From the NCBI RefSeq assembly GCF_003002895.1, contig NZ_PVTI01000027.1:1-48821 (forward strand): DNA of 48,821 nt, given 5' to 3'. The DNA is from Knoellia remsis. Its GTDB lineage: Bacteria > Actinomycetota > Actinomycetes > Actinomycetales > Dermatophilaceae. Below the pieces are notes generated by a model that saw only the letters and a program-made list of their open reading frames with translations, did no database searches and was not told where the DNA came from. The translations under genes and the position numbers were made by a program. Positions 92 through 48,539 of this stretch are shown here, piece after piece (the stretch's first letter is position 1; the number at the start of each line of letters is the position of its first letter).

Positions 92-1744
92 CTAGCTGTC
101 GAGGTCGTCGGCGTCGACGATGCGGTACGCGTAGCCCTGCTCGGCGAGGAATCGCTGCCGGTGCGCGGCGAAGTCGGCGTCGACGGTGTCCCGCGCGACG
201 ACGGTGTAGAAGTGCGCGGTCCGTCCGTCGCCCTTGGGCCGGAGCACCCGGCCGAGCCGTTGCGCCTCCTCCTGCCGGGAGCCGAACGTCCCGGACACCT
301 GGATGGCGACGCTCGCCTCCGGCAGGTCGACCGAGAAGTTCGCGACCTTGCTCACGACGAGCAGCGAGATCTCGCCCGTCCGGAAGGCCTCGAAGAGCCG
401 TTGCCGCTGAGCCACCGGCGTCTCACCGGTGATGAGCTCGGCATCGAGCCGCCCCGAGATCTCCTCGAGCTGGTCGAGGTACTGCCCGATGACGAGGGTC
501 GGCTCGCCGCGGTGCCGGGCCACGAGGCGTTCGACGACGGGGAGCTTGGCGTCCGAGCAGGAGGCGAGGCGGTAGCGGTCGTCGGCGTCAGCGACGGCAT
601 ACGCCATCCGCTGCCCCTCGGGCACCGTGACCCGCACCTCGACGCAGTCCGCGGGTGCGATGTACCCCTGCGCCTCGATGTCCTTCCACGGCGCGTCGAA
701 TCGCTTGGGCCCGATGAGCGAGAAGACGTCGGACTCGCGCCCGTCCTCGCGCACGAGCGTCGCGGTGAGGCCGAGGCGGCGACGGGCCTGGAGGTCGGCG
801 GTCATCCGGAAGATCGGTGCCGGCAGCAGGTGCACCTCGTCGTAGACGATGAGGCCCCAGTCCCGCGCGTCGAGCAGGTCGAGGTGGGTGTAGACGCCCT
901 TCCGGCGGGTCGAGAGCACCTGGTAGGTCGCGATGGTCACCGGCCGGATCTCCTTGCGGGAGCCGGAGTACTCGCCGATCTCGTCCTCGGTGAGGGTCGT
1001 GCGGCGCAGCAGCTCGTCCTTCCACTGCCGCGCCGAGACGGTGTTGGTCACGAGGATGAGCGTCGTCGTCGCGGCCTTGGCCATCGCGCCCGCGCCGACA
1101 AGCGTCTTGCCGGCGCCGCAGGGGAGGACGACGACGCCGGAGCCGCCGTCCCAGAAGCCGTCGACCGCTTGCTCCTGGTAGGGCCGCAGGGTCCACGCGT
1201 CGTCGCCCTCACCGGTGTCGAGGGCGATGGGGTGCGCCTCGCCGTCGACGTAGCCGGCCTCGTCCTCCGCCGGCCAGCCGACCTTGAGCAGCTCCTGCTT
1301 GAGGTGACCGCGTTCGCTCGGGTGGACGAGGACGGTGTCGTCGTCGAGCTGCTCTCCCACGAGCGGGCGAATCTTCTTGTGCCGCAACACTTCCGTGAGC
1401 ACGGCGCGGTTCGTCGTGCGGAGGACGAGGCGGCCTTCGTCGTCCTTGGTCAGGGTGAGCCGTCCGTAGCGCGCCATCGTCTCGGCGACGTCGACGAGGA
1501 GCGAGTGCGGGACGGCATACCGGCTGTGCGTCACGAGGGCGTCGACGACCTGCTCGGCGTCGTGCCCGGCGGCGCGGGCGTTCCACAGCCCGAGCGGCGT
1601 GACGCGGTAGGTGTGGATGTGCTCCGGAGCGCGCTCGAGCTCGGCGAACGGGGCGATGGCCCGGCGCGCCTCGGCGGCGCGGGGATGGTCGACCTCGAGC
1701 AGGAGCGTCTTGTCGCTCTGGACGATGAGGGGGCCGTCGGTCAC
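92..1744 (-). CDS. XPB/ERCC3-like DNA repair helicase
   Basis: A 550-residue superfamily 2 helicase of the bacterial XPB type, an ATP-driven 3'-5' DNA translocase. The N-terminal ~180 residues are the XPB-like damage-recognition and helicase-associated part. Walker A reads PCGAGKT near residue 207, the DEAH-type box reads YDEVHLLPAP near residue 300, and motif VI reads QEEAQRLGRVLRPK near residue 495. The length suits bacterial XPB. The start is a GTG 21 bases after the stop of the proline-rich membrane protein gene (1766-2650), so the two may be co-transcribed. No convincing ribosome site or leaderless -10 is seen, so the exact start is uncertain. In mycobacteria the xpb gene sits beside a helicase-associated-domain gene; here the likely partner is at 4143-6104, three genes away. 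Confidence 0.9.
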   Translation of the reverse strand: MTDGPLIVQSDKTLLLEVDHPRAAEARRAIAPFAELERAPEHIHTYRVTPLGLWNARAAGHDAEQVVDALVTHSRYAVPHSLLVDVAETMARYGRLTLTKDDEGRLVLRTTNRAVLTEVLRHKKIRPLVGEQLDDDTVLVHPSERGHLKQELLKVGWPAEDEAGYVDGEAHPIALDTGEGDDAWTLRPYQEQAVDGFWDGGSGVVVLPCGAGKTLVGAGAMAKAATTTLILVTNTVSARQWKDELLRRTTLTEDEIGEYSGSRKEIRPVTIATYQVLSTRRKGVYTHLDLLDARDWGLIVYDEVHLLPAPIFRMTADLQARRRLGLTATLVREDGRESDVFSLIGPKRFDAPWKDIEAQGYIAPADCVEVRVTVPEGQRMAYAVADADDRYRLASCSDAKLPVVERLVARHRGEPTLVIGQYLDQLEEISGRLDAELITGETPVAQRQRLFEAFRTGEISLLVVSKVANFSVDLPEASVAIQVSGTFGSRQEEAQRLGRVLRPKGDGRTAHFYTVVARDTVDADFAAHRQRFLAEQGYAYRIVDADDLDS

Positions 1745-1765
1745 GCGGTCTGTCGTGTCCTCGCG

Positions 1766-2650
1766 TCAGTAGGTCGGCTCGTAGTCGGTGCTGTAGTCGC
1801 TGCCCATGCCGTCGGCAACCCCGAAGGCGATGAGGACTCCCACGATGACCAAGCTGAGGACGAACAGGACGGCGAAGGCGATCCACCCCCACCTCGTGAG
1901 CCGTCGCGACCCCTCGGGGTCGGTGGAGTTCTTGCTCAGGGCCATGATGCCGAAGACCAGCGAGACGACCATGGGCAGGCAGCAGCTGACCGTCAGCAGC
2001 CCCGAGAGGATCGTCAGGACGAGGGCGCTCGTGTTGCTCTGCGGCGCCGCGCCGTACGCAGCGGGCGGGTTCTGCCAGTCACCGGGTGCTGCGTAGGGCG
2101 GGTAGCCGCCGGGCTGGGCCTGGCCGCCGGTCGCCGCATAGGGGTCGTATGCCGGCTGCGCACCGTAGGGCTGCTGCGCACCGTACGCCTGTTGGCCGCC
2201 ATGCGACTGCTGCGGCTGCTGGGACCACGGGTCGGACGCCGGAGGCGGCGCCGCGGCATACGGGCTCTGGGAGTAGGGGTCCGAGGGGCGCGCGTCGGCG
2301 GGGTAGGGGTTGGTCGGCTGCGCGCTCGACCCGGCGTAGGGGTCACCGCCCGGTCGCGGCGCCGCGAGCGGACTGTCGTAGGACGGGTGGTCCGGGGCTG
2401 GCGGGACGGGTGGGACGCCCGGCTCGGACCCGCCGGACGAACCGTGTGCCGATGAGGCGGTCGGGTCGCTCGGCTCGCTCGGGTCGTTCGACTCGCTCGA
2501 CCCTTGGGGGAGGTGCTGGGTCCCGCCCTGCGGGATCTGCTCGGTGGGCGCGCTCGCCGGAGCGCCGCTGGGGGAGCTCCAGTCCGGGTTGGCCGTCGGG
2601 TCCGAGAACCCTCCCTGCTGCTCGTTCCCCTGCTCGTCCTTCTCGCTCAT
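1766..2650 (-). CDS. proline/glutamine-rich protein with two membrane segments (DUF4190-like)
   Basis: About 294 residues. Residues 1-185 are low complexity, rich in Pro, Ser, Gln, Gly and Tyr, with repeated QPYGAQ-like and DPYxxS-like units. The C-terminal ~90 residues hold two hydrophobic segments separated by a short polar loop (MALSKNSTDPEGSRRLTRWG). This resembles DUF4190-type actinobacterial membrane proteins, in which a disordered cytoplasmic tail precedes a two-helix anchor. The start at MSEKDEQ is supported by a TACCGT -10 seven bases upstream; an upstream ATG would place this -10 inside the gene. The role is unknown. It may share a transcript with the XPB helicase. Confidence 0.75.
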   Translation of the reverse strand: MSEKDEQGNEQQGGFSDPTANPDWSSPSGAPASAPTEQIPQGGTQHLPQGSSESNDPSEPSDPTASSAHGSSGGSEPGVPPVPPAPDHPSYDSPLAAPRPGGDPYAGSSAQPTNPYPADARPSDPYSQSPYAAAPPPASDPWSQQPQQSHGGQQAYGAQQPYGAQPAYDPYAATGGQAQPGGYPPYAAPGDWQNPPAAYGAAPQSNTSALVLTILSGLLTVSCCLPMVVSLVFGIMALSKNSTDPEGSRRLTRWGWIAFAVLFVLSLVIVGVLIAFGVADGMGSDYSTDYEPTY

Positions 2651-2657
2651 GGGGAGA

Positions 2658-2663
2658 ACGGTA
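2658..2663 (-). promoter_or_regulatory. leaderless -10 (TACCGT) of the DUF4190-like gene
   Basis: TACCGT fits TANNNT and ends 7 bases before the ATG at 2650, so transcription should begin at or next to the start codon. No ribosome-binding site lies between. Confidence 0.5.
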
Positions 2664-2702
2664 TCCTCTGGTTCACCGATCCACACCGGAAGAGGGGGAG
2701 CA

Positions 2703-9859: not shown

Positions 9860-10183
9860 ATGAGCAACGGTGTGCACAGCGATCCGGGAGCCGGCGACGC
9901 GCGGCGCGCGGCCGGCATACCGGACGACCCCGCGGACGATGCCACCCGGGTCACCGACGGCGAGGCCGAGGTCCTCGCCGCGATGGACGTGCCGACGCAG
10001 CGGATCATCGTCGTGGGGCTCGCGGTGTGGGTCGTCGCGTTCGTCGTCACCCTCGCCGTGCCGGCGCTCCACGAGGGGGACAGGTCGTGGTGGCCGTGGG
10101 CGTGCGTCGCCGGGTTTGCGCTGGGCCTGCTCGGGCTGCTCTACGTCCGACGCGGCCGCGGCAACGCCGCCCTCACCGACTGA
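9860..10183 (+). CDS. DUF2530-like small membrane protein
   Basis: 107 residues: a polar N-terminal region, then two hydrophobic segments (IIVVGLAVWVVAFVVTLAV near 48-66 and a second near 80-97) and a basic end YVRRGRG. It matches the general pattern of DUF2530 proteins. It lies 21 bases after the DUF3027 stop, in the same presumed operon. One GGCATAC motif at 9914 forces an ATA isoleucine codon, which is very rare at this GC content. Role unknown. Confidence 0.7.
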   Translation: MSNGVHSDPGAGDARRAAGIPDDPADDATRVTDGEAEVLAAMDVPTQRIIVVGLAVWVVAFVVTLAVPALHEGDRSWWPWACVAGFALGLLGLLYVRRGRGNAALTD

Positions 10184-11766: not shown

Positions 11767-12222
11767 ATGGGGAGTGACGAGAGCAGCACGTATGCCGCCC
11801 TCTCGCCTGCCGCTGTGTCGAGGCTGGCGGGTGAGCTGCGGCTCGCCTGCATGCGCATTTCGCGCCGCGTCCGCTACGAGAGCACCGACGCCGTTGCGCC
11901 GCACCAGTTCTCGGCCCTCTGCCGCCTCGAGGACGCGCCCCGCACCCCCGGCGAGCTCGCCGAGATCGAGCGGGTGAGCGCGCCGTCGATGACGCGGACG
12001 ACGAACGGCCTCGTGGAGCGGGGCCTCGTCGAGCGCACCGCCGACCCGACCGACAAGCGGCAGGTCATCCTCACCCTCACCCCAGACGGCCACGGGCTCC
12101 TCAAGGAGATCCGGCGCCGGCGTGAGGCGTGGATGTTCGTCCGCGTGAGCCACCTCGACCCCGAGGAGCAGGCCGTGCTGCAGCGCGCCGCCGCCATCCT
12201 CACCCGCGTGGCCGCCGAATGA
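11767..12222 (+). CDS. MarR-family transcriptional regulator
   Basis: 151 residues with a winged-helix fold. The recognition region is TPGELAEIERVSAPSMTRTTNGLVERGL (near 57-84), followed by the beta-wing ERTADPTDKRQVILTLTPDG, whose Asp-Lys-Arg is diagnostic of MarR. The length is normal. The protein should bind DNA as a dimer and release it on ligand binding. The MFS exporter gene starts inside its stop codon (ATGA), so it most likely controls that transporter and itself through the inverted repeat over its promoter. It might also influence the divergent purine permease. Confidence 0.9.
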   Translation: MGSDESSTYAALSPAAVSRLAGELRLACMRISRRVRYESTDAVAPHQFSALCRLEDAPRTPGELAEIERVSAPSMTRTTNGLVERGLVERTADPTDKRQVILTLTPDGHGLLKEIRRRREAWMFVRVSHLDPEEQAVLQRAAAILTRVAAE

Positions 12223-15261: not shown

Positions 15262-17659
<2,398 letters not shown>

Positions 17660-18445: not shown

Positions 18446-19882
18446 GTGAGCGGCGTGCCGCCGTCCGAGAGCTCCACGGGGAACCCCGGCCCGCGGGAGC
18501 TCTCGCTGAGGAGCATCGCGCTCCCGGCGTTCGGGCCCACGGCGGTGTGGTCGGTCGGGCTCGGGGCGTCCCTGCCGGTCGTCGCGCTCAGCGCCCGCGA
18601 CCTCGGGGCGAGCGTCGCGGTGGCGGCGGCGTTCGTCCTCATCGAGGGGCTGGCGGCGTTCGTGGCGACGCTCCCGGCCGGGTCCCTCGTCGCGCGGGTG
18701 GGGGAACGGCGCGCCCTCGTCGGGGCGGCCGTCGTCGACGCGGTCGGGGCACTCATGGCCGTGCTCGCGCCGAACCTGCTCGTCCTCGGGCTCGCCATCG
18801 GCCTCATGGGCACGACCGGCTCGGTCTTCCTCCTCGCCCGCCAGTCCTGGCTCACCGCCCGCGCTCCGGTGCGGGTGCGGGCTCGCGCGATGTCGACGAT
18901 GGGTGGCGTCCAGCGCATCGGCCTCTTCGTGGGACCGTTCCTCGCGGCACCGGTCATCGCCGTGTGGGGCACGAGGAGCGCGTATGCCGTCGCGGTCGTC
19001 GCGGGGCTGCTCGCCGCGGTCTGGGCGTGGGTCGCGCTGCGCGACGACGAGTTCGACGAGGGTGCCCCCGCGACGTCCGGTGCGGCCGCCACCTCGGGTG
19101 CGCACGGCGGGACGGGACCGGACACTCACACGGGTGCGGGCGGGCATACGGAGAGGGACACGCACACGGGTGCGGGCCGGCATACGGAGAGGGACACGCC
19201 CACACGCGCGGGCAGGCATACGGGTTCGGGTGGGGAGAGGACGACGAACACGCAGAGGGCAGCCTCCGTCCGGGAGCCCGGACCACGACTGCTCGACGTC
19301 GTCCGCGGGCACCGCGGCGTCCTCGCGACCCTCGGGCTCGGCGTCCTCCTCATCGGCGCGGCGCGACAGGGACGGTTCGTCGTCGTGCCGCTGTGGGCCG
19401 AGCACGTCGGCATCAGCGACAGCACGACGGCGGTGATCTTCGGCGTCGCGGGGGCGGCCGAGGTGCTGCTCTTCTATCCGGCCGGCTCGGTGATGGACCG
19501 CTTCGGGCGGGTGTGGGTGGGGGTGCCGCTGCTCCTCGTCCTCGGTGTCGGGATGGTGGTGCTGCCCCTGACCCAGACGGTCGCGGCGGTCACCGTGGTC
19601 TCGACGGTCATGGGCGTCGGCAACGGGCTCGGCTCCGGCATCGTCCAGACGCTCGGCGCCGACGTCGCACCCGTGGGGCAGAGGGTGCAGTTCCTCGCGG
19701 TGTGGCGCTTCCTCTCGCTCATCGGGCAGAACGGCGGGCCGCTCCTCGTCAGCGCGGTGTCGGCGCTCGCGGGCCTGGCGACGGCCTGCGTCGTCCTCGG
19801 CGCGCTCGTCCTCGCCGGGGTGCCGCTCCTCGCCCGGTGGCTCCCTCGGCACGACCCCCGCCGCACCGTCGGTCCCGGGTGA
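18446..19882 (+). CDS. MFS transporter with repeat-bearing central loop
   Basis: About 478 residues with 12 predicted membrane segments in two halves. The first half has GSLVARVGERRALVG near 75 and the second has GSVMDRFGRVWVG near 350, both typical MFS loop 2-3 motifs. The central cytoplasmic loop (about 205-280) holds three 12-residue repeats of the form DTHTGAGxHTER, an unusual expansion. The GTG at 18446 is chosen for lack of an alternative upstream of the divergent start. Substrate unknown. The gene is followed 13 bases later by the DtxR regulator. Confidence 0.82.
   Translation: MSGVPPSESSTGNPGPRELSLRSIALPAFGPTAVWSVGLGASLPVVALSARDLGASVAVAAAFVLIEGLAAFVATLPAGSLVARVGERRALVGAAVVDAVGALMAVLAPNLLVLGLAIGLMGTTGSVFLLARQSWLTARAPVRVRARAMSTMGGVQRIGLFVGPFLAAPVIAVWGTRSAYAVAVVAGLLAAVWAWVALRDDEFDEGAPATSGAAATSGAHGGTGPDTHTGAGGHTERDTHTGAGRHTERDTPTRAGRHTGSGGERTTNTQRAASVREPGPRLLDVVRGHRGVLATLGLGVLLIGAARQGRFVVVPLWAEHVGISDSTTAVIFGVAGAAEVLLFYPAGSVMDRFGRVWVGVPLLLVLGVGMVVLPLTQTVAAVTVVSTVMGVGNGLGSGIVQTLGADVAPVGQRVQFLAVWRFLSLIGQNGGPLLVSAVSALAGLATACVVLGALVLAGVPLLARWLPRHDPRRTVGPG
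19121..19228 (+). repeat. three 36-bp in-frame tandem repeats
   Basis: Units begin at 19121, 19157 and 19193, each ending in GGCATACGG (heptamers at 19143, 19179 and 19215). The first two units differ at only a few bases; the third is more diverged. They encode DTHTGAGGHTER, DTHTGAGRHTER and DTPTRAGRHTGS in the MFS central loop. Confidence 0.9.
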
Positions 19883-31600: not shown

Positions 31601-32482
31601 GAAGTGGACAGGGTTGTCGACCTCGTGCTGGACCACGCCCTGAACCGGCCGGGGGAGAGCCTGGGCGTCATCGCCCTCGGGATCGCCCACGCCCGGCGGC
31701 TCGAGGAGGCCCTCCGTCGGGCCCTCGCCGGTCTCGACCAGGAGACCGCGCGCTTCTTCACCGAGGATGTCCACGAGCGCTTCTTCATCAAGAACCTCGA
31801 GCGGGTCCAGGGTGACGAACGGGACGCGATCATCCTGTCGGTGGGCTACGGCAAGACGCCACACGGCCGGGTCCTGCACCGGTTCGGGCCGCTCAACACC
31901 GAGGGTGGGGAGCGGCGGCTCAACGTCGCGGTGACGCGGGCCCGGCGGCGGATGACCGTCGTCTCCTCGATCGGCGCCGACGAGCTCGACCCGCAGCGGC
32001 TCAAGGCCCGCGGGGCGATCATGCTGCGCGACTTCCTCGCCCATGCCGCCGCGTCGTCGGCCGGTGCGCCCCGCGACGCGACCGCCACCGGGGGCGCGGT
32101 CGGCGCCGAGGCCTCGCAGCTCGACTCCGTCGTCCTCGCCGAGTTCGCGAGGCGCCTGCGCGAGAGCGGCCTCGTCGTGCACGAGCGCTACGGCTCGTCC
32201 GAGACTCCCGTCGATCTCGCGGTCGAGGACCCGAACCGTCCCGGCCGCCTCGCCGTCGCCGTCGAGTCCGACGGGTCGTCGTATGCCGCGATGTCCAGCA
32301 GCCGTGAGCGCGACCGGCTGCGTGCCGAGCAGCTCGGCCGGCTCGGCTGGCAGCACGTGCGGGTGTGGACGCGTGACGCGTTCCGCGACCCTGCCCGCGA
32401 CGTCGCGCGCATCCACGCCCTGGCCGGGCAGTCCGGGGTGCGCCCCGAGGCAGCTGCCCGCCCCGGCCGGGGCGGCGCGTGA
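28655..32482 (+). CDS. DUF4011-type SF1 helicase with C-terminal MTES_1575/Vsr-like nuclease
   Basis: 1275 residues. The N-terminus (RDAVAAWTRHLVDLGGRNTLLWYRDL) resembles the DUF4011-containing helicase family. Walker A is GPPGTGKSQT (K307). Motif II is FDEASQIPPAEA (D853-E854), separated from motif I by a ~540-residue insertion, as in large COG1112-type helicases. Motif VI is NVAVTRARRRM near 1090. Residues ~1155-1260 form an endonuclease-like domain of the MTES_1575/Vsr type (PVDLAVEDP, then VAVESDG with E1204). Related helicase-nuclease fusions are suspected in phage defence, but this gene could equally act in repair. It is a GTG start, six bases after TAGCCT. The next small gene overlaps it by GTGA. 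Confidence 0.85.
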   Translation: MSETGPQPDVEPRTARVRDAVAAWTRHLVDLGGRNTLLWYRDLPSGTLDLTTAHPGGVAMLLAGRPTRLSDLVREPAAFDEARRRARTIAGKARELREERGIDAGFVAVGMATWSLGRAGGAASRQPAAPVLLRSCTLRATSPQHDDYELDLGDELELNPVLEHYLASEQGITLDVERLEGLATTPNGFDPYPTYAALTEACARIPDFAVEPRIVLGTFSYAKLPMVADLAGHGDSLADHDVIAAIAGDPTAMRSVRHELPARPADAVPDPAQGLLVLDADASQEEAIDAVRSGANLVVHGPPGTGKSQTIANLLAALAADGKRVLFVAEKRAAIDAVVGRLDRVGLSDLVLDLHDGARGRRRIATELADSLPGRSPRPQDPPSRDVDRLRASASTLREHRDAMHESRHPWGVSVHEVQEAISSLASRERPPHSRVRLRGEALQSLPRDRFEVLTRELTRVASLGAWRTDRGDDPWYGATVRTQEDAVRAQELVDRWSGGGVAAVGTIIDEVFTGLRVPASRSVRDWGSILDTVSSVRDTLETFRPEIFDTPLGDVVAATGSAAYRAQVGAELGWWERRSLRRGVRRHVRPGRPPADLHAALVRANEQRSAWTRMAGGGGRPEMPADLDRAITAYAALAADLEWLQERVPAASSGAGSETSTAGVALVDLPREELTARLDALAAAPERLAVLPSVIGPLESMRSAGLGPLIDDLALRGVEADDVAPEADFVWWSSVLDDIALRDPRVGAHDGDDLRRVVGEFADADAAVLRGNATRVRAAVRARIDSVIADSPELESIVRAEAAKSRRHRSLRDLMPVAGELVTALRPCWVMSPLVVASVLPPGVWFDVVVFDEASQIPPAEAVSAIARARQVVVAGDAKQLPPTSFFTTVSDDGESAPTDNLSEGVESVLDVLAATLPSRRLTWHYRSLDERLIAFANEQVYDSALVTFPGTGTAPVLTHELVDGVGVVADGAASVETTQAEVDRVVDLVLDHALNRPGESLGVIALGIAHARRLEEALRRALAGLDQETARFFTEDVHERFFIKNLERVQGDERDAIILSVGYGKTPHGRVLHRFGPLNTEGGERRLNVAVTRARRRMTVVSSIGADELDPQRLKARGAIMLRDFLAHAAASSAGAPRDATATGGAVGAEASQLDSVVLAEFARRLRESGLVVHERYGSSETPVDLAVEDPNRPGRLAVAVESDGSSYAAMSSSRERDRLRAEQLGRLGWQHVRVWTRDAFRDPARDVARIHALAGQSGVRPEAAARPGRGGA

Positions 32483-34472: not shown

Positions 34473-34566
34473 GGTGGGTTCCTCCCGGAAGGCGAAATGC
34501 TGCTCAAGGATACGGAACAGCGCCGAGCGCCCGCGTATGCCGTCCGCTCGCCTTGGTGCGGCCCGC

Positions 34567-36321: not shown

Positions 36322-39033
36322 GTGACTGCGCAGCGTGTCGTCCGTCGAGCGGCTCTCGGTGTCGTCGGCTTCCTCGCCGTCGTCGCTCTCGTCCTGTCGA
36401 TCGTCGGGGTCTCGCTCGTGCGGCGCTCCTTCCCGCAGACCGAGGGCGAGCTCGAGCTGCCCGGGCTCTCCGCCGCCGTCACGGTGCTGCGCGACGACCG
36501 CGGGATCCCCCAGATCTACGGCGACACGGTCACCGACATCGCGATGGCCCAGGGCTACGTCCACGCGCAGGACCGGTTCTTCGAGATGGACCTGCGCCGG
36601 CACGTGACCTCCGGCCGGCTCTCCGAGCTCGTCGGGTCGGCCGGACTCGAGACCGACAAGGTCATCCGCACGATGGGCTGGCGGCGCGTCGCGGAGGAGG
36701 AGCTGCCCGCACTCGACCCCCAGACGCGCACCTACCTCCAGGCCTACGCCGACGGCGTCAACGCCTACCTGCGCGGCCGCTCACCGTCCGAGGTGTCGCT
36801 GGAGTATGCCGTCCTCGGCATGAGCGTCAAGGACTACCGCATCGAGGACTGGACCCCCGCCGACTCGGTCGCGTGGCTCAAGGCGATGGCCTGGGACCTG
36901 CGGGGCAACTACTCCGATGAGCTCGCCCGGGCGCGGCTCTCGACCCGTGTGACGCAGGCGCAGATCCGCGAGATCTACCCGCCCTACGACCCGGCGAACG
37001 CGCCGATCCTCTCCGCGCAGGCGTGGTCGCCGCGCACGGCGCCGGGCCAGGTGTCCTCGGCCGTGCCGCCGGCGCTGGGCGACTCCGCGTCGCGGGCGGC
37101 CGCAGCGACGTCCCCGGGGGCAGAGCGTTCGTATGCCGCCGCGCCGAGCGCGGGTGCCGCGGCGCGGGCCGCGTCGACGTCCCCGGGGGCACAGCGTGCG
37201 TATGCCGCGGTGGACCGTGCGCTCGCGGCCGTCCCCGCGCTGCTGGGCCGGGGTGACGGGATCGGCTCGAACTCGTGGGTCGTCGGTCCGCAGCAGTCCG
37301 AGACCGGCAAGCCGCTCCTCGCCAACGACCCGCACCTCGCGCCGGGCATCCCCGGCATCTGGTACCAGGTCGGCCTCAAGTGCCGGAAGGTCTCGACGCA
37401 GTGCCCGCTCGACGTCTCGGGCTTCTCGTTCTCCGGGGTGCCGGGCGTCGTCATCGGCCACAACGCCCGGATCGCGTGGGGGTTCACCAACCTCGCGCCC
37501 GACGTGACCGACTTCTACCTCGAGCGGGTGCGCGGCGACCGGGTCCAGCGGGGCACCGCCTGGGAGCCGCTCACGACCCGCCGGGAGGTCATCCGGGTCG
37601 CCGGCGGCAAGGGCGAGACGATCACCGTGCGCTCGACGCGACATGGGCCCGTCATGTCCGACGTCCTGCCGGAGTTCGCCGACGCCGGTGAGCGCTCACC
37701 GACGCCGCGGCGCGAGGGCAGCGCGCCGCTCCCGGAGGAGTCCTTCGCCGTCTCGATGGCGTGGACCGGCCTGCAGCCGTCCCGCACGGCCGACGCGATC
37801 TTCCAGCTCAACATCGCCCAGAACTTCGGCGAGTTCCGTGAGGCGGCCAAGTCGTTCGCCGTCCCGTCGCAGAACCTCCTCTACGCCGACGTCGACGGCA
37901 ACATCGGCTACCAGGCGCCGGGGATGGTGCCGGTGCGGACGTCGGCCTTCCCCGGCTCACCCCCGGGCTTCTGGCCGGCGCCGGGCTGGGAGGAGACCTA
38001 TGACTGGCAGGGGTGGGTGCCCTTCGAGTCCATGCCGATGGCCTACAACCCGGCCGAGGGCGTCATCGTCACGGCCAACCAGGCGGTGACGATGAGCCAG
38101 AGGCCGTTCCTCACGACCGAGTGGGACTACGGCTTCCGGGCCCAGCGCATCGACGACCTGCTGTCGCAGGCGACGAAGGACGGCGGCAAGGTCGGCGTGG
38201 ACGACATGGCCCGCATCCAGATGGACACCCGCAACCAGTTCGCTCCCAAGCTCGTCGCGGCGCTGCTCGAGGTGCCGCTCGCCGGGCCCGAGGACTCCGA
38301 CGCCGACGTCGCGTTCACCCGCGAGGCGCAGGACCTCCTCAGGTCCTGGGACTTCACGACCCCCGCCGACGACTCCGAGAACGGCGCCGCGGCGGCCTAC
38401 TACAACGCCGTCTGGGCGAACCTGCTGCGCCTCACCTTCGATGACGAGATGCCGGAGGACCTGCGCGCCGACGGAGGCAGCCGGTGGATGGCCGCCGTGA
38501 GCGCGCTCCTCGACAACCCCAAGAGCGCCTGGTGGGACAACCGGCAGACCGCCTCGATCACCGAGGGCCGCAACGAGATCCTGCGCCAGGCGCAGGTGGA
38601 GGCGCGGCTCGAGCTGACCAAGGAGCTCGGCAAGGACCCGGACGGCTGGCGCTGGGGCCGGCTGCACACTCTCGAGCTCACCCACGACGTCCTCGGCGGC
38701 GACGGGGCGCCCGGCATCGTCAACCGCATCTTCAACCGCGGCGGGTTCGAGATGCCCGGCGGCTCCTCGATCGTCAACGCCAACGGCTGGGACGCCAGCG
38801 TCGGCTACGAGACGAGCTGGGCGCCGTCGATGCGGATGGTCGTCGACCTCGGCAACCTCGACGCGTCCACGTGGATCAACCAGACCGGTGCGAGCGGCCA
38901 CGCCTTCAGCAGCAACTACGACGACCAGGCGGAGGACTGGGTCAAGGGGCGGCAGGACCCGTGGCCCTTCTCCGAGAAGGCCGTCCGCGAGGCGAGCGAG
39001 GACGAGCTCACCCTCACGCCCGAGCGCGACTGA
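36322..39033 (+). CDS. penicillin acylase family protein
   Basis: 903 residues, an Ntn-hydrolase precursor. An N-terminal membrane or signal segment (near 9-31) leads to the alpha chain (about 45-235, with AQGYVHAQDRFFEMDLRRH). A variable linker follows (about 240-312). The beta chain begins at the nucleophile S316 in GIGSNSWVVG. FTNLAPDVTDFYLERV and ANQAVTMSQRPF are family motifs. The linker, normally removed by autoprocessing, contains a 32-bp repeat carrying GTATGCC. GTG start, leaderless. Substrate may be acyl-homoserine lactones or other amides; not predictable. Its 3' end overlaps the convergent cyclo-ligase gene by 20 bases. Confidence 0.93.
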   Translation: MTAQRVVRRAALGVVGFLAVVALVLSIVGVSLVRRSFPQTEGELELPGLSAAVTVLRDDRGIPQIYGDTVTDIAMAQGYVHAQDRFFEMDLRRHVTSGRLSELVGSAGLETDKVIRTMGWRRVAEEELPALDPQTRTYLQAYADGVNAYLRGRSPSEVSLEYAVLGMSVKDYRIEDWTPADSVAWLKAMAWDLRGNYSDELARARLSTRVTQAQIREIYPPYDPANAPILSAQAWSPRTAPGQVSSAVPPALGDSASRAAAATSPGAERSYAAAPSAGAAARAASTSPGAQRAYAAVDRALAAVPALLGRGDGIGSNSWVVGPQQSETGKPLLANDPHLAPGIPGIWYQVGLKCRKVSTQCPLDVSGFSFSGVPGVVIGHNARIAWGFTNLAPDVTDFYLERVRGDRVQRGTAWEPLTTRREVIRVAGGKGETITVRSTRHGPVMSDVLPEFADAGERSPTPRREGSAPLPEESFAVSMAWTGLQPSRTADAIFQLNIAQNFGEFREAAKSFAVPSQNLLYADVDGNIGYQAPGMVPVRTSAFPGSPPGFWPAPGWEETYDWQGWVPFESMPMAYNPAEGVIVTANQAVTMSQRPFLTTEWDYGFRAQRIDDLLSQATKDGGKVGVDDMARIQMDTRNQFAPKLVAALLEVPLAGPEDSDADVAFTREAQDLLRSWDFTTPADDSENGAAAAYYNAVWANLLRLTFDDEMPEDLRADGGSRWMAAVSALLDNPKSAWWDNRQTASITEGRNEILRQAQVEARLELTKELGKDPDGWRWGRLHTLELTHDVLGGDGAPGIVNRIFNRGGFEMPGGSSIVNANGWDASVGYETSWAPSMRMVVDLGNLDASTWINQTGASGHAFSSNYDDQAEDWVKGRQDPWPFSEKAVREASEDELTLTPERD
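37106..37206 (+). repeat. 32-bp repeat pair inside the acylase linker
   Basis: Copies at 37106-37137 and 37175-37206 begin CGACGTCCCCGGGGGCA and end CGTATGCC, differing at two bases. They encode TSPGAERSYA and TSPGAQRAYA, 69 bases apart in frame. Confidence 0.85.
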
Positions 39034-39652
39034 CCCAGGTCACGCCCTCCGCGGTGAGCACCCCGTCGACCGGCTCGTCGTGGTCGCCGCACGGCAGCGG
39101 GTCGGTGCGCAGCTCGCCGGGGTGGAGGACGGCGAGCACCCGGGCGTCGCGGTGGCGGCGGGTGAGCGCTCGGTCGTAGCTGCCGCCGCCGCGCCCGAGC
39201 CGGGTGCCGCCGGTGTCGGCAGCGAGCGCCGGGACGAGGACGAGACGCGCCGCGGCGATGGCGTCCCGGCCGAGGGGAGTGCGCGCGGGGTCGGCGGGGT
39301 CGCACCAGTCGAGGTCGCGGTCGGGGAGCGTGACCGGGACGATGACCCGTATGCCGCCCGCGGCCAGCGCCGCGAGCGTCGCCTCCGTGGGGGGCTCGCT
39401 CGGCAGGGCCTCGTAGGCGGCGACCGTGCCGCCGCGGGGGACGCCGGTCGCGGCGGCGAGGCGCACGGCATACGACGCGATGGCGGCGGCGTCGGCGGCG
39501 CGGTCGCGCCCGGCGACGGTGGCGCGCCGCGCCGCGAGGAGACCGGGACGCGCCGCGGCCTTGGCGTCGTGGACCGCTCGCGGCGCGGCCCTGGCGTGGT
39601 CGAGCTCTCGCGCCTCGACGTCTCGCTCCTGCATCGCCCCAGTCTCGCCCAT
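39014..39652 (-). CDS. 5-formyltetrahydrofolate cyclo-ligase
   Basis: About 212 residues. The glycine-rich loop TRLGRGGGSYDRALTRR near 160 is the ATP-binding signature of the family, which converts 5-formyl-THF to 5,10-methenyl-THF with ATP. The central segment AGGIRVIVPVTLPDRDLDWCDPADP fits. The N-terminal start is uncertain; ATG 39634 is an alternative that removes six residues. It is transcribed divergently from the UDP-glucose pyrophosphorylase gene, with 25 bases between starts, and overlaps the acylase 3' end. Confidence 0.87.
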   Translation of the reverse strand: MGETGAMQERDVEARELDHARAAPRAVHDAKAAARPGLLAARRATVAGRDRAADAAAIASYAVRLAAATGVPRGGTVAAYEALPSEPPTEATLAALAAGGIRVIVPVTLPDRDLDWCDPADPARTPLGRDAIAAARLVLVPALAADTGGTRLGRGGGSYDRALTRRHRDARVLAVLHPGELRTDPLPCGDHDEPVDGVLTAEGVTWVSRARA

Positions 39653-41078: not shown

Positions 41079-42280
41079 GGTCGGTCGAGGAGCACCGCGC
41101 GGCGGTCCTCTCGCTCGTCTCGCCCCTGCCGCCGGTCTCGGTGGGGCTGTCCGAGTCGCTGGGTCGGGTCCTCGCCGCGGACATCGCCGCGGCCGTGGAC
41201 CTTCCGGGCTTCGACAACAGCGCCATGGACGGGTATGCCGTCCGCGCGGCCGACCTCGCGGGCGCGGCGCCGGGGTCGCCGGTCGTCGTCGAGGTCGACG
41301 GTGACATCCCGGCGGGGGACACCCGGCACCACGAGCTGCGCCCGGGTGCCGCCATGCGGATCATGACCGGGGCGCCCATGCCGGCCGGTGCCGACGCCGT
41401 CGTGCCCGTCGAGGAGAGCGACGGGGGTGTGGAGCGGGCGACCCTGACGCTCGCCCCGGCGGTCGGTCGGCACGTCCGGCGACAGGGCGAGGACGTGCGC
41501 TCCGGCGACGTCGTGCTGCGCGCCGGGACACGGGTGACGCCGGGACGGCTGGCGCTGCTCGCCGCGGCCAACGTGCCCGACGTCCTCGTCGCGCCCCGTC
41601 CGCGCGTGCACGTCCTCTCGACCGGCGACGAGCTCGTGCCGGTCGGAGGCCACCTCGAGCACGGCCGGATCGTCGACTCCAACGGCGCGATGCTCGCCGC
41701 CCTCGTCCGAGCCGGCGGTGGGGAGCTCGTCGGGGTCGGGCACCTCGACGACGACCCCGGCGCGTGGACCGGGCTGTTCGACGTCGACGACTCCGGCACC
41801 GACCTCTACCTCACGACGGGCGGTGTCTCGATGGGCGCCTACGACACCGTCAAGGAGGTGCTGTCACGCACGGGGGGAGTCGAGTTCACCAAGGTGGCGA
41901 TGCGCCCGGGCATGCCGCAGGGCGCTGGCGTCGTCGGTCCAAGGCGCACGCCGATCATCACCCTGCCGGGCAACCCGGTGAGCTCGTTCGTGTCCTTCCA
42001 CGTGTTCGTCCTGCCGGCGCTGCGAGCGCTCGCGGGGCTCGACCCGGCGGCGGGCGCGACGGATGCCGTTGCCGCACAGGGCTGGTCGTCGGTTCCCGGC
42101 AAGGTCGAGCTGACCCGGGTCGTCCTGGACGGGGACGGTGCCCGACCCTCGGGTGGCCAGGGGTCGCACATGCTCGGCGCCCTCGCCGACGCCACGCACC
42201 TCGCCGTCGTGGATGCGGCGACGACGGAAGTCCGCCAGGGGGACCCGGTTCGGCTCATTCCTCTTGTCGGGCAGGATTGA
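41075..42280 (+). CDS. moeA: molybdopterin molybdotransferase MoeA / gephyrin-like Glp
   Basis: 401 residues with the full MoeA layout: domain I/II (DLPGFDNSAMDGYAVRAADL near 43, MTGAPMPAGADAVVPVEES near 97), domain III with TTGGVSMGAYDTVKEVL near 249 and LPGNPVSSFVSFHVFVLPALRAL near 300, and a C-terminal barrel. It inserts molybdate into adenylated molybdopterin. However, the position between a UDP-glucose pyrophosphorylase and a rimJ-sepX pair matches the actinobacterial glp gene, whose gephyrin-like product takes part in cell division with FtsZ. With moaC and mog also here, a dual or ambiguous role is possible. GTG start overlapping the previous stop. Confidence 0.9.
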   Translation: MRSVEEHRAAVLSLVSPLPPVSVGLSESLGRVLAADIAAAVDLPGFDNSAMDGYAVRAADLAGAAPGSPVVVEVDGDIPAGDTRHHELRPGAAMRIMTGAPMPAGADAVVPVEESDGGVERATLTLAPAVGRHVRRQGEDVRSGDVVLRAGTRVTPGRLALLAAANVPDVLVAPRPRVHVLSTGDELVPVGGHLEHGRIVDSNGAMLAALVRAGGGELVGVGHLDDDPGAWTGLFDVDDSGTDLYLTTGGVSMGAYDTVKEVLSRTGGVEFTKVAMRPGMPQGAGVVGPRRTPIITLPGNPVSSFVSFHVFVLPALRALAGLDPAAGATDAVAAQGWSSVPGKVELTRVVLDGDGARPSGGQGSHMLGALADATHLAVVDAATTEVRQGDPVRLIPLVGQD

Positions 42281-42341: not shown

Positions 42342-42896
42342 ATGGGTGAGTTGCACGTGAGTGACGTCGATCCGACGCCCGACCGGACGCATGACATCGT
42401 CGCGACGCAGGGTGCCCGCACGCAGGGTGCCCGCCTGACCCACGTGCGCCCCGACGGGACGGCGCACATGGTCGACGTGTCCGCGAAGCAGGTCACCGCC
42501 CGCGAGGCCACCGCCCGCGGCCGGGTGCTGCTCAGCCCCGAGGCGGTCGCCGCCCTGCGGGACGGGACCGTCCCCAAGGGTGACGCGCTCGCGGTCGCGC
42601 GACTGGCCGGCATACAGGCCGTGAAGCGGACACCCGAACTCGTGCCACTCGCGCACCCGGTCGCCGTCCACGCGGCGTCGGTGGACCTCGAGGTGGCGGA
42701 CGACGGGGTCGACATCGTCGCCACCGTGCGCACCGCCGACCGCACGGGCATCGAGATGGAGGCCCTCACCGCGGTCGCCGTCGCGGCACTCGGCCTCATC
42801 GACATGGTCAAGGCCGTCGACAAGCACGCCCGCATCACCGACGTCCGTGTCACCGCGAAGTCCGGCGGCCGCTCCGGGGACTGGAGCGAGTCGTGA
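42342..42896 (+). CDS. moaC: cyclic pyranopterin monophosphate synthase MoaC
   Basis: About 184 residues. RLTHVRPDGTAHMVDVSAKQVTAREA, LAGIQAVKRTPELVPLAHPV and GIEMEALTAVAVAALGLIDMVKAVDK are the MoaC signatures; the KRTPELVPLAHP and MEALT motifs line the active site that forms cyclic pyranopterin monophosphate. The start is uncertain: ATG 42342, GTG 42357 and ATG 42333 are all in frame. ATQGARTQGAR reflects a 15-bp tandem duplication near 42410. A GGCATAC motif forces an ATA codon at 42609. Its stop overlaps the mog start (GTGA). Confidence 0.92.
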   Translation: MGELHVSDVDPTPDRTHDIVATQGARTQGARLTHVRPDGTAHMVDVSAKQVTAREATARGRVLLSPEAVAALRDGTVPKGDALAVARLAGIQAVKRTPELVPLAHPVAVHAASVDLEVADDGVDIVATVRTADRTGIEMEALTAVAVAALGLIDMVKAVDKHARITDVRVTAKSGGRSGDWSES

Positions 42897-45470: not shown

Positions 45471-45485
45471 TCCGACGACCGACGG

Positions 45486-46781
45486 TCAGCTGCCGGGCGC
45501 CTTGTCCTGGAGCTCCTCCTCGGCGAGTCGGCGCTCCTGTTCGGTCTCGTCGCGGGTGCGTTCCCGCTCGGCGAGGGTGAGCATCTCCTCGGCCGTGTCC
45601 GGCAGGTCGGAGCCGTCGAGCAGGTGATGGCCGACGGCGTTGAGGACGGCGATGGTCGGGACGGCGATGAGGGCGCCGACGATGCCGGCGACGACGACAC
45701 CCGCGGCGATGCCGAGGATGACCGCGAGCGGGTGGACGCGCACCGCTCGGCCGAGGAGGAACGGCTGGAGGATGTGCGACTCCATCTGCTGCACGAGGAT
45801 GACGCCGCCGAGCATGAGCAGGGCCTTGACCGGGCCGAGGGCGACGAGGGCGAGCAGCACCGGCACGGCGCCGGAGATGAGCGCACCGATGACCGGGATG
45901 AACGCGCCGAAGAAGACGAGGATGGCGACACCGGACGCGAACGGCACCCCGAGCAGTGCGGCGATGAGTCCGATGCCGAGCGCGTCGGCGGCGGCGACGA
46001 GGATCGTCGCGCGGGTGAAGGCGCTGAGCTGGCCCCACGCGATGATGCCGGAGGAGTGGACTCGCTCGCGGGCAGCGCGGGGGAAGAGCCGGACGACCCA
46101 TGCCCAGATGCGCTCGCCCTCGTAGAGGAAGAAGAACAGCGCGAAGAGGGAGATGAAGAAGCCGGCGATGGTGTGCGAGACCGTGAGCCCGGCCTTCGTC
46201 GCGGTCTGCCCGAGGTTGCCGCTGCCGCTGCTCAGCTGCTCGCGGGCCGTCGCGATCCAGTCCTGCACCTGGGTGTCGGTGATGCCGAAGGTGCTGCGGA
46301 ACCAGTCGCGGATCTGGTCGATGCCCTGACCGACCTGGCTGCTGATGTCGCTGAACTGGGAGGTGAACTGCGACCCGACGAAGCTGAGGATGCCGATGAT
46401 GAGGGCGAAGGTGCCGATGACGGTGAGTCCGGCCGCGAGTCCGGTCGGCATGATGCGGTCGAGGCGCTGGGTGACCGGCCGGAGCAGCGCCGCGAGCAGG
46501 ATCGCGACGATGATCGGGATCGTCACCGTCGACAGGTAGGCGAACAGCCACAGCGCGGCGAGCACGGCGGCGGCGACGACCATGCTGCGCCACGCCCACT
46601 CGCTCGCGGTGCGCACACCCATCGGCACCTTCCAGGCAGCCGGCTGGTGGGTGGGGTCGGTGTCGACGGCGGGGGTGGACGTGCTCGACGGTCCGCTCTC
46701 GGTGACGGCCTGGCTCGAGAGGCGCGGGAGGCCGGCGGGGTCGGCGTGGCCACCCTGGCGGGACGGCATACGAAGTCGCAT
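45486..46781 (-). CDS. AI-2E family transporter
   Basis: 431 residues. A polar N-terminus (1-65) precedes about eight membrane segments. Family motifs include IPIIVAILLAALLRPVTQRLDR near 88, FFFLYEGERIWAWVVRLFP near 222 and the late segment LLMLGGVILVQQMESHILQPFLLGRAVRVHPLAVILGI near 325, typical of the AI-2E/TqsA/PerM superfamily. The C-terminal tail is charged and coiled-coil-like. Members include quorum-signal exporters and ion antiporters, so the substrate is open. ATG start seven bases after TACGCT, a -10 that lies within the GGCATAC motif. Confidence 0.9.
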   Translation of the reverse strand: MRLRMPSRQGGHADPAGLPRLSSQAVTESGPSSTSTPAVDTDPTHQPAAWKVPMGVRTASEWAWRSMVVAAAVLAALWLFAYLSTVTIPIIVAILLAALLRPVTQRLDRIMPTGLAAGLTVIGTFALIIGILSFVGSQFTSQFSDISSQVGQGIDQIRDWFRSTFGITDTQVQDWIATAREQLSSGSGNLGQTATKAGLTVSHTIAGFFISLFALFFFLYEGERIWAWVVRLFPRAARERVHSSGIIAWGQLSAFTRATILVAAADALGIGLIAALLGVPFASGVAILVFFGAFIPVIGALISGAVPVLLALVALGPVKALLMLGGVILVQQMESHILQPFLLGRAVRVHPLAVILGIAAGVVVAGIVGALIAVPTIAVLNAVGHHLLDGSDLPDTAEEMLTLAERERTRDETEQERRLAEEELQDKAPGS

Positions 46782-46798
46782 GTCACTGAGCGTATGCC
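46765..46798 (-). promoter_or_regulatory. inverted motif pair around the AI-2E start and its -10
   Basis: GGCATACG (46765-46772) and CGTATGCC (46791-46798) are perfect inverted copies flanking the start codon at 46781. On the minus strand the distal copy supplies the -10 TACGCT (46794-46789), seven bases before the ATG. Confidence 0.5.
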
Positions 46799-46835
46799 GG
46801 GTCGCGCCGGTTTCGTCGGTGCGCGGGCGCGGTGT

Positions 46836-46841: not shown

Positions 46842-46855
46842 GTTCCCCGCTCCAA

Positions 46856-46928
46856 GGGGCTGTGGCGCAGTTGGTAGCGCGTCTCGTTCGCAATGAGAAG
46901 GCCAGGGGTTCGAATCCCCTCAGCTCCA
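46856..46928 (+). tRNA. tRNA-Ala(CGC)
   Basis: 73 bases. The acceptor GGGGCTG pairs with CAGCTCC (one G-T), discriminator A. The anticodon stem TCTCG/TGAGA encloses TTCGCAA, anticodon CGC (reads GCG). The T-arm is AGGGG-TTCGAAT-CCCCT. CC follows, then C, so CCA is not fully encoded. Confidence 0.95.
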
Positions 46929-46938
46929 CCCAGGTCGA

Positions 46939-46967
46939 AGGGCCGGACACGACGCGTGTCCGGCCCT
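46939..46967. terminator. 13-bp perfect hairpin after tRNA-Ala
   Basis: AGGGCCGGACACG (46939-46951) pairs with CGTGTCCGGCCCT (46955-46967) around ACG. It ends the tRNA transcript and can also stop the convergent DUF2200 gene. Confidence 0.85.
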
Positions 46968-46990
46968 CTCGTATGACTGCCTGTGCCTGC

Positions 46991-47332: not shown

Positions 47333-47338
47333 GCTGCG

Positions 47339-47344
47339 AGGGTA
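47339..47344 (-). promoter_or_regulatory. leaderless -10 (TACCCT) of the DUF2200 gene
   Basis: TACCCT ends 6 bases before the ATG at 47332. Confidence 0.55.
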
Positions 47345-47371
47345 ACCACCTCGCGACCGGCGCCGTCCCGG

Positions 47372-47445
47372 GCGCGGCGCGCCCGCGGCATACGCACACG
47401 TCAACGGCGAGCCTCCGACGCGCGGCGCGCACGCGGCATACGCAC
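47372..47445. repeat. 26-bp direct repeat carrying GGCATACGCAC
   Basis: Copies at 47372-47397 and 47420-47445 begin GCGCGGCGCGC and end CGCGGCATACGCAC, one difference, 48 bases apart, in the divergent gap between DUF2200 and YihY genes. Confidence 0.85.
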
Positions 47446-47489
47446 CTGCGTGCGCAGCGACCGTGCGCCCGGTGTGATGGGATTGAGCC

Positions 47490-48539
47490 GTGGGAGTTGT
47501 CGACCGTCTGGACCGGTTCCAGCGCAAGCACCGGGTGGTCGGCTACCCCATCGCGGTGCTCTACAAGTTCTTCGATGACCAGGCGGGCTATCTCGTCTCG
47601 TTGATGGCGTACTACGCCTTCCTGTCGATCTTCCCGCTGCTGCTCCTGCTGTCGACGCTGCTCGGGTGGGTGCTGCAGAGCAAGCCCGAGTGGCGCGAGC
47701 AGATCATCGACTCGGCCGTCCAGGAGATCCCGGTCATCGGCGCGCAGCTAGGCGACCCGTCGACGCTGCAGGGCAGCCCGTTCGCGATCGTCGTGTCGTC
47801 GCTCGTCGCTCTCTACGGTGGGCTCGGCGTGGGGCAGGCGTTCCAGTACGCGATGAACACCGTGTGGGGCGTGCCGCGCAACTCGCGCCCAAACCCGTTC
47901 GCGGCCCGCGGGCGCAGCTTCGTGCTGCTGCTCAACGTGCTGCTCTTCGTCATCCTCACGACCGGGCTGACGGTCATCGCGTCGACGGATGTGTTCGGGT
48001 CGGCGGAATGGTTCCGGGCCATCGGCGGCAAACGCCTCATCCTCGGCATCGCGTCGTTCGTCATCACGGCGGTCGTCTTCGCGCTCGCGATGCGGCGGGC
48101 GATCGCCAGGCCGGTGACGCTGCGGCAGGTCATGCTCGGCGCGATCGGTTCGGCGCTGACGTGGCAGTTCCTGCAGGTGTTCGGGGTCCGGTTCGTCGAG
48201 GGCGTCATCCAGGGGTCGTCCGCGTCGAACACGGTCTTCGGGATCGTGCTCGGTCTGCTCGCGTTCTTCTATGTCACCGGGCTCGGGATCGTCATGTCGG
48301 CGGAGGCGGATGTGGTGCGCTCCGAGCGGCTGTACCCGCGCGCGCTGATGACGATCTTCACCGACGACGTCGAGCTGACCGAGGGGGATCGGCGCGCGTA
48401 TGCCCGGGCTGCTCGGATCGGGCGGTTCAAGGGGTACCAGCACATCGATGTGCAGTTCGACCCCGACCCCGAGCCGCCGGAGGTGGTCAAGTCCGGATCG
48501 GTGGTGTACGACGGTGATCCGTCGAGGGTTGTGGTTTAG
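47490..48539 (+). CDS. YihY/BrkB-family membrane protein, C-terminus probably altered
   Basis: 349 residues with about six membrane segments. [29 protein letters not shown] near 32, [24 protein letters not shown] near 108 and [33 protein letters not shown] near 250 are typical of the YihY/virulence factor BrkB family, once misnamed RNase BN. The function is uncertain. GTG start with TGGGAT six bases upstream. The last 15-20 residues ([18 protein letters not shown]) appear to be encoded by the end of the IS256-type element, so the native C-terminus may have been replaced. Confidence 0.85.

What the first reader, a model, noticed from the sequence alone, without database searches (positions are those of the whole stretch)
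596..48404. Strongly over-represented heptamer GTATGCC/GGCATAC across the whole window
By eye I count about 55 copies (28 in one orientation, 27 in the other). A composition-based estimate of about 4-5 for both strands would make this a more than tenfold excess. The motif crosses every context: genes on both strands, intergenic hairpins, tandem repeats and disordered protein linkers. It brings in disfavoured codons (TAT for Tyr in most genes, ATA for Ile at 9914 and 42609) where the synonymous TAC or ATC would break the motif. It therefore looks selected or spread at DNA level. Balanced orientation argues against a replication-polar signal of the FtsK type. Candidates are a modification or restriction site, a chromosome-organising protein site, an uptake-type signal, or a mobile short element.
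Basis: partly seen in the sequence, partly recalled or inferred. Interest (0 to 1): 0.85.

Follow-up and report, generated by a model that had tools for sequence, protein, structure and literature searches.

The report
Family-wide DNA "self" tag, likely uptake signal
An actinobacterium and many of its relatives carry the same eight-letter DNA word about once per thousand bases, while some relatives carry a different word instead; this looks like the "own DNA" tag used when bacteria pick up free DNA, a thing so far described mainly in two families of Gram-negative bacteria.

Summary
The window holds 55 GTATGCC (28 +, 27 -) against 1.5 expected; the genome holds 3350, and 3277 GTATGCCG. The word is GTATGCCG, about 0.92 per kb, without strand polarity. 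It is kept at DNA level: after G and before GCC-G, tyrosine is TAT in 129 of 146 cases, against 138 of 2037 before non-alanine codons. Copies persist between congeners at about 80% identity (66% of aligned cells against 19% for flanking 8-mers). The four motif-poor stretches examined hold mobile, defence or accessory genes.

The strong excess is confined to one family, GTDB Dermatophilaceae; none of 386 other genomes of the class comes near. Several relatives that lack it carry another word: GTACGRCG, GTAGCGGC, GTAGASC, or CGAAGGGGG in Janibacter and a sister genus. Dialects, density, lack of polarity and universal comEA/comEC are traits of DNA uptake sequences. All 37 carriers examined match a Tad-pilus ATPase, interrupted in two. 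I judge a DNA uptake signal most likely (0.66). Uptake was not tested and the receptor is unknown; a methyltransferase-linked repeat like cyanobacterial HIP1 is the main rival.

The parts
596..48404 (.). 55 copies of GTATGCC (52 are GTATGCCG), 28 on + and 27 on -; the genome-wide repeat sampled by this window
37200..37207 (+). coding copy (Tyr-Ala, TAT GCC G) in the penicillin-amidase gene; identical in 8 of 9 aligned congener rows (one congener gives two rows)
39349..39356 (+). copy antisense to a gene (Gly-Ile, ATA); identical in 8 of 8 aligned congener rows
41233..41240 (+). coding copy (Tyr-Ala) in the moeA-like gene; identical in 8 of 8 aligned congener rows
42608..42615 (-). copy antisense to a gene (Gly-Ile with rare ATA); identical in 8 of 8 aligned congener rows
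46764..46799 (.). divergent inverted pair GGCATAC...GTATGCC; the left copy identical in all 4 congeners compared, the right in 3 of 4
16414..16473 (.). intergenic cluster of three copies (one -, two +), not kept in the 3 congeners aligned there
34535..34553 (+). intergenic copy with the own-genus extended flank GTATGCCGTCCGCTCGCCT
11790..11808 (+). intergenic copy with part of the extended flank, core identical in 3 of 3 congeners aligned there
19143..19221 (-). three copies spaced by 36 bp in a repeat

Best explanation
GTATGCCG is most likely a DNA uptake sequence: a short self tag that a competence pilus or surface receptor prefers when the cell takes up free DNA. Fragments that carry it enter more often and recombine, so alleles with the word spread and are restored after mutation; this would build up about one copy per kb on both strands, wherever protein and regulation tolerate it. 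The likely machine is a Tad/Flp pilus with ComEA and ComEC, as shown by others for Micrococcus luteus. Related lineages changed the word (dialects). SHOWN here: excess, lack of polarity, DNA-level maintenance, family restriction, other words in several non-carriers, four motif-poor stretches with mobile, defence or accessory genes, matches to com and tad genes in all 37 carriers examined (tadA interrupted in two of them, the own strain included). INFERRED: uptake, preference, the receptor and the spread by recombination.
For: Density 0.92 per kb genome-wide (3277 GTATGCCG in 3.57 Mb), of the order of the Neisseriaceae DUS counts seen in passages of PMC3630211. No polarity in a relative on one contig: 80/94 and 93/93 fwd/rev in its two halves, 20 stretches of 20 kb. 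DNA-level maintenance: TAT 129 of 146 against 138 of 2037; GCA 101 of 200 against 3 of 177; 86 of 130 site cells identical in four congeners against 18.7% of flanking 8-mers. One-mismatch words are near background in the own genome (345 in 469 kb, 0.74 per kb, against 371 in 580 kb, 0.64 per kb, of genomes without the word). Dialects: G118 GTACGRCG 103 in 96 kb against 5 in 28 kb in its two sisters; G141 GTAGCGGC, 6 in 20 kb fetched after discovery against 3 in 122 kb in Ornithinimicrobium sisters; CGAAGGGGG 11 in 28 kb of J. indicus and two further g63 genomes not used for discovery, against 8 in 800 kb of own and G131; G131 and Arsenicicoccus GTATGNCG. Motif-poor stretches carry phage integrases, a TrwC relaxase, a SMODS synthase, an HNH nuclease. 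PF03772 (ComEC) and TIGR00426 (ComEA) match in 75 of 75 at E <= 0.001; ComEA is over its cut-off in 38 of 75. TadA class C matches in 37 of 37 carriers and 29 of 38 others. Mobile elements sit inside tadA in two carriers and a prophage inside comEC in one non-carrier, as discussed for competence genes elsewhere (search listing).
Against: No uptake was tested and no receptor found. ComEA and ComEC do not separate carriers from non-carriers. G125 lacks TadA class C at the threshold used yet has the CGAAGGGGG word, so that pilus is not required for every dialect. The own genome's tadA class C is interrupted, so this strain may not be competent now; the match is also partial in G028 (contig end) and G064 and has one in-frame stop in G169, G171 and G176. 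Convergent inverted pairs are only 15 against 6.2 expected, divergent 10 against 6.3, weaker than described for Neisseria. For g2, g10, g14, g15 and others no dialect was found. One genome of another family, G497, has a mild excess (170 against 27 for the reversed control). Alternate words are also reported for HIP repeats (PMC4390886 abstract). The review passages that I saw name only Neisseria as choosy.
Confidence: 0.66

Rival explanations
1. A methyltransferase-linked repeat like cyanobacterial HIP1: an orphan methyltransferase reads the word, and a methylation-dependent repair or other process creates and keeps it; changes of enzyme give changes of word.
For: HIP1 is a high-frequency octamer, near absent in some members and replaced by alternate words in others (PMC4390886 abstract). 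GTATGCCG is exact and kept at DNA level.
Against: The HIP words are palindromes; none of GTATGCCG, GTACGRCG, GTAGCGGC, CGAAGGGGG is. By the abstract HIP1 one-base deviants cluster at the ends; here deviants are near background at all positions in the own genome, and in G131 and Arsenicicoccus the free position is internal. The own genus has an extended one-sided flank to +18. Methyltransferases were not searched, so this stays open.
Confidence: 0.15
2. A binding site of a chromosome-organising or nucleoid protein needed evenly along the chromosome.
For: Both strands, all contexts, no polarity, missing from the islands looked at.
Against: Several thousand exact 8-bp sites is far denser than known organiser sites (recalled); spacing is Poisson-like (CV 1.03); word changes within a family and within genera are hard to explain for a protein with thousands of sites.
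Confidence: 0.08
3. A recombination hotspot (Chi-like) read by a helicase-nuclease during break repair.
For: Chi words are exact, short and over-represented (established knowledge).
Against: RecC has no match in 24 of 37 carriers, the three own-genus genomes included, and a match in 21 of 38 others. No polarity. An AdnAB-read word was not tested.
Confidence: 0.05
4. A restriction-modification or defence recognition word, kept because it marks self.
For: Non-palindromic words of 6-8 bp are read by several defence systems (established knowledge).
Against: Such words are normally avoided, and an 18- to 38-fold excess kept over a whole family is not expected.
Confidence: 0.04

Closest known systems
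DNA uptake sequences (DUS) of Neisseriaceae
   Same: Thousands of copies per genome, coding and intergenic, dialects between species, some family members without an obvious word (PMC3630211 passages). The own-genus flank GTATGCCGTC shares ATGCCGTC with the AT-DUS (the AT prefix is recalled; GCCGTCTGAA seen), but only 162 of 671 own copies have TC there.
   Different: Gram-positive, high-GC host; the DUS core CTG is absent from GTATGCCG; the DUS receptor ComP is a minor pilin of type IVa pili (passage), which are missing in nearly all genomes here (PilT over cut-off in 1 of 75, a split copy in one more).
Uptake signal sequences (USS) of Pasteurellaceae
   Same: Short non-palindromic core, about one per kb, one-sided flank (recalled; the family's use of uptake sequences is in the abstract of PMC7811141, search listing).
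   Different: Different word, phylum, envelope and pilus; the flank here is GC-rich in the own genus.
Tad/Flp-pilus competence of Micrococcus luteus
   Same: tad clusters needed for transformation, com genes beside them (PMC4322843 passages); the likely machine here.
   Different: The term 'uptake sequence' does not occur in the main text of that paper.
HIP1 repeats of cyanobacteria
   Same: Genome-wide octamer, patchy presence, alternate words.
   Different: HIP1 is palindromic and linked to methyltransferases (PMC4390886 abstract).

Membership tests
DNA uptake sequences (DUS/USS) | Strong genome-wide excess, about one per kb | tested here: met
   3277 GTATGCCG in 3.57 Mb; 38-fold over second-order Markov in 469 kb
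DNA uptake sequences (DUS/USS) | No polarity with replication | tested here: met
   173 fwd, 187 rev in 20 stretches of relative G131, no clear difference between halves; origin near the contig start is assumed
DNA uptake sequences (DUS/USS) | Dialects among relatives | tested here: met
   GTATGCCG, GTATGNCG, GTACGRCG, GTAGCGGC, CGAAGGGGG; two checked on DNA not used for discovery
DNA uptake sequences (DUS/USS) | Missing from recently acquired DNA | tested here: met
   Four motif-poor stretches examined, all with mobile, defence or accessory genes; not a genome-wide test
DNA uptake sequences (DUS/USS) | Inverted pairs forming terminator-like hairpins | tested here: inconclusive
   15 convergent pairs within 45 bp against 6.2 expected in 709 kb, without correction for intergenic density
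DNA uptake sequences (DUS/USS) | Competence machinery in carriers | tested here: met
   ComEC and ComEA matches in 75 of 75, TadA class C in 37 of 37 carriers; tadA interrupted in two carriers, comEC split in one
DNA uptake sequences (DUS/USS) | Preferential uptake of tagged DNA | not testable with these tools
   Needs a transformation assay
DUS with a ComP-type receptor | Type IVa pilus | tested here: not met
   PilT family over cut-off in 1 of 75 genomes, not in the own genome
HIP1-like repeats | Palindromic word | tested here: not met
   GTATGCCG and the other words are not palindromes
HIP1-like repeats | Cognate orphan methyltransferase | not tested
   No methyltransferase search was run
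Chi sites of RecBCD | RecBCD in carriers | tested here: not met
   RecC matches in 13 of 37 carriers, in none of the three own-genus genomes tested
FtsK-orienting words (KOPS type) | Polarity | tested here: not met

The most novel reading that the evidence does not exclude
The Dermatophilaceae use sequence-specific DNA uptake: uptake sequences in Gram-positive bacteria, read by an unknown receptor of a Tad/Flp competence pilus or by ComEA, with at least four dialects that split the family, and even genera, into separate gene-exchange groups.
Probability: 0.58. Interest if true: 0.93.

Novelty: new variant of a known kind. Interest (0 to 1): 0.86.

Why it matters
If right, self-recognition in natural transformation also arose in monoderm actinobacteria, with another pilus. 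The word switches inside genera (G118, G141, G065) would make the old question of what drives uptake sequences, selection for sex or passive molecular drive, directly testable, and would allow a receptor hunt by covariation. It could also give a practical handle for transforming hard-to-engineer actinobacteria.

Tried and rejected
Replication-polar signal: no polarity. RecBCD Chi: RecC does not track the word. Mobile short element: coding copies sit in two preferred frames, and aligned non-carriers mostly differ by substitutions. Codon preference: rejected. Loss of comEC as the cause of word loss: comEC reads in one frame in most non-carriers; it is in two frames in G118, interrupted by a prophage in G113 and cut near a contig end in G141, but also split in carrier G025. 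At first I read G118, G065 and G141 as plain losers of the word (notes); that was wrong, they have other words; the tables already hinted at it. Type IVa pilus: absent from nearly all. Tad loci of four carriers and four non-carriers: tadA, B and C in 8 of 8, three further genes in 7 of 8, the small flp-like gene in 6 of 8; no carrier-only gene was seen among the clusters listed. Candidate words CCGCATCGG (G117) and CAGTTGC (G018) were not confirmed: 0 hits in 8 kb of one congener each, too little DNA to reject them. Repeats in G033 (AACAACTGA and the like) were not followed. Direct repeats at the tadA insertions: the own genome has one chance-level 9-base match, G015 none of 10 or more. The genus name of the own genome was not obtained.
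Full report
CHECK OF THE OBSERVATION. GTATGCC occurs 55 times in the window (28 +, 27 -) against a shuffle mean of 1.48. It is the top 7-mer of the window by z-score, and the 8-mer GTATGCCG (52 of 55) the top 8-mer. In the whole genome (3,573,222 bases, 62 contigs) there are 1656 forward and 1694 reverse GTATGCC; GTACGCC, one base away, has 531. In 469 kb of this genome the 8-mer is 38-fold over a second-order Markov model (427 against 11.2).

ANATOMY. With a home-made gene caller (codon log-odds, 84% coding) the density is about 2 per kb between genes and 0.74 per kb inside genes. In the own genus the intergenic copies have a one-sided flank, roughly sGTATGCCGtccGCkCgCCT (119 copies without an inverted partner near by). 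In relative G131 the core is the same but the flank leans to C-G at +8 and +9, and copies are no denser between genes than inside them. Gaps between copies in the own genome are Poisson-like (mean 1063, CV 1.03). Single-mismatch words are near background in the own genome (345 in 469 kb; 371 in 580 kb of genomes without the word); in G131 and in Arsenicicoccus position 6 is free (GTATGNCG: 471 in 400 kb and 64 in 94 kb).

DNA-LEVEL MAINTENANCE. When Tyr is followed by GCC-G and preceded by G, TAT is used 129 of 146 times; before non-alanine codons TAT is used 138 of 2037 times. Ala before Tyr is GCA in 101 of 200 cases when a G precedes and 3 of 177 when not. Window against four congeners (79-81% identity in aligned parts): 86 of 130 aligned site cells are identical, against 23% of all 8-mers and 18.7% of 8-mers 9-33 bp away; 9 of 18 sites aligned in all four are identical in all four, against 6.5% of 8-mers; TAT inside the word stays TAT in 47 of 74 cells, TAT elsewhere in 7 of 42. 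A smaller comparison with eight congeners gave 43 of 76 cells, and 3 of 9 sites fully kept against 194 of 7786 8-mers; there 8-mers around other TA-rich points were kept in 42% of cells, a weaker contrast.

NO POLARITY, ISLANDS. In 20 stretches of 20 kb on the single contig of G131 the forward/reverse counts are 80/94 in the first half and 93/93 in the second; that the contig starts near the origin is assumed. The four motif-poor stretches that I looked into hold an HNH nuclease and unassigned genes (L049), a TrwC relaxase (L053), two phage integrases (L018) and a SMODS synthase with a PIN protein (L016).

DISTRIBUTION. All nine genomes of the own genus carry 1971-3277 copies. In 186 family genomes presence goes largely by genus: the 12 genomes of genus g2 hold 18-35 copies, the 16 of g63 hold 9-38. 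Named loci and shared contig lengths put the family as Dermatophilaceae in the GTDB sense (the family name itself is my reading of the member names): Ornithinimicrobium, Terrabacter, Humibacillus, Intrasporangium oryzae, Arsenicicoccus and Phycicoccus elongatus Lp2 loci carry the word; 12-22 kb loci of Janibacter indicus, Intrasporangium flavum and Dermacoccus abyssi have none. Of 394 genomes drawn from the class, 386 lie outside the family; by my reading of the table none exceeds about 52 copies per Mb, while one (G497) has a mild excess, 170 against 27 for the reversed control. On a ComEC tree of 75 family genomes the 37 with at least 140 per Mb need 11 changes, at least 6 forced by well-supported branches (25.3 in shuffles), so the word is old and was lost or replaced, or gained, several times.

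DIALECTS. Three genomes that lack the word sit inside carrier genera. G118 has GTACGRCG at 1.07 per kb (103 in 96 kb; 1.12 per kb between genes), its two sisters 0.18 (5 in 28 kb). G141, in the genus of Ornithinimicrobium tianjinense, has GTAGCGGC 14 times in 25 kb, and 6 times in 20 kb fetched afterwards, against 3 in 122 kb of its sisters. G065, with Arsenicicoccus, has GTAGASC at 0.76 per kb, its sisters 0.09; this one is weaker and was not tested on new DNA. Genus g63, taken as Janibacter because J. indicus DNA is closest to it (77-80% identity), has CGAAGGGGG 38 times in 100 kb (G097), 11 times in 28 kb of J. indicus and two more g63 genomes, and genus g67 47 times in 76 kb, against 3 and 5 in 400 kb each of own and G131. 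The words of G118, G141 and G065 keep the start GTA. G118's word may also occur in g66 (11 in 16 kb). For g2, g10, g14, g15, g26 and others I found no convincing word.

MACHINERY. ComEC and ComEA match in 75 of 75 genomes (75 chosen by me from 208 handles; ComEA over its cut-off in 38), so they do not separate carriers. A true type IVa PilT is over its cut-off in one genome (G032), with a split copy in G013. A Tad ATPase class (alignment A2) matches in 66 of 75; the nine without it are all non-carriers of GTATGCCG (0 of 37 against 9 of 38, p = 0.002, but only about four independent losses on the tree, and G125 without it has the CGAAGGGGG word). Among the 37 carriers the match is interrupted in two, partial in G028 (contig end) and G064, and has one in-frame stop in G169, G171 and G176. 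The locus has T2SSE, two T2SSF, TadE and Tad domains and much the same make-up in four carriers and four non-carriers. In M. luteus tad genes are needed for transformation (PMC4322843, passages). Here mobile elements sit in these genes: a 6.8-kb insert with two phage-integrase-family proteins inside tadA of the own genome (L018), an 11-kb insert with two resolvase-family recombinases inside tadA of G015 (L261), and a prophage with tail and lysis genes between two pieces of comEC in G113 (L029-L030). Insertion of mobile elements into competence genes is treated in PMC4774983, PMC11472951 and PMC12955456 (search listing and abstract starts only).

MECHANISM. The simplest account is biased uptake: tagged fragments enter more often, and recombination spreads and repairs the word. 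It explains density, placement by tolerance, exactness, absence from new DNA and dialects at once. Shown: the sequence facts. Inferred: uptake, bias, receptor. The HIP-like methyltransferase account explains several of these too and was not tested.

COMPARISON AND NOVELTY. The DUS passages that I saw (PMC3630211) describe much the same set of features. The receptor type known there (a minor pilin of a type IVa pilus) cannot apply to most carriers. Searches of the paper library for the word itself, for uptake sequences with Actinobacteria or Actinomycetota, with Gram-positive and M. luteus, with Dermatophilaceae or Intrasporangiaceae names (12 of 973 listed) and with Janibacter or Terrabacter and oligomer terms listed no report of this word or of uptake sequences in this phylum among the rows shown; the library lacks most subscription papers and holds no preprints.

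One-mismatch total in genomes without the word corrected from 372 to 371; the Janibacter label, the prophage and the recombinases were checked.

Noticed in passing
L018:9254-17273 (G000:C3): The own genome's tadA (class C) is interrupted between codons 110 and 111 by a 6.8-kb insert with two phage-integrase-family proteins and no GTATGCC.
   Followed up: partly
L261:4848-15885 (G015:C43): In another carrier tadA is interrupted near codon 205 by an 11-kb insert with two resolvase-family recombinases.
   Followed up: partly
L029-L030 (G113:C1): A prophage with tail and lysis genes lies between two pieces of comEC.
   Followed up: partly
L031:7063-9458 (G118:C1): comEC is read in two frames, changing near residue 609, in the genome with the GTACGRCG word; could be a sequencing error.
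   Followed up: partly
L001-L020, L027 and window: The palindrome CCAATTGG is strongly over-represented in the own genome (23 places in 469 kb, 134-fold over the model); 12 intergenic GTATGCC copies have CCCAATTGGA within 60 bp, as if part of a longer intergenic repeat.
   Followed up: no
L016:3295-13838: Motif-free stretch with a SMODS nucleotidyltransferase and a PIN-domain protein, a likely defence island.
   Followed up: no
window 28655-32482: Large protein with DUF4011, helicase and MTES_1575 nuclease domains, possibly a defence protein.
   Followed up: no
L174, L225, L226: G125 DNA is rich in long C/G runs (CCCCCCCCC 45 times over both strands in 48 kb).
   Followed up: no
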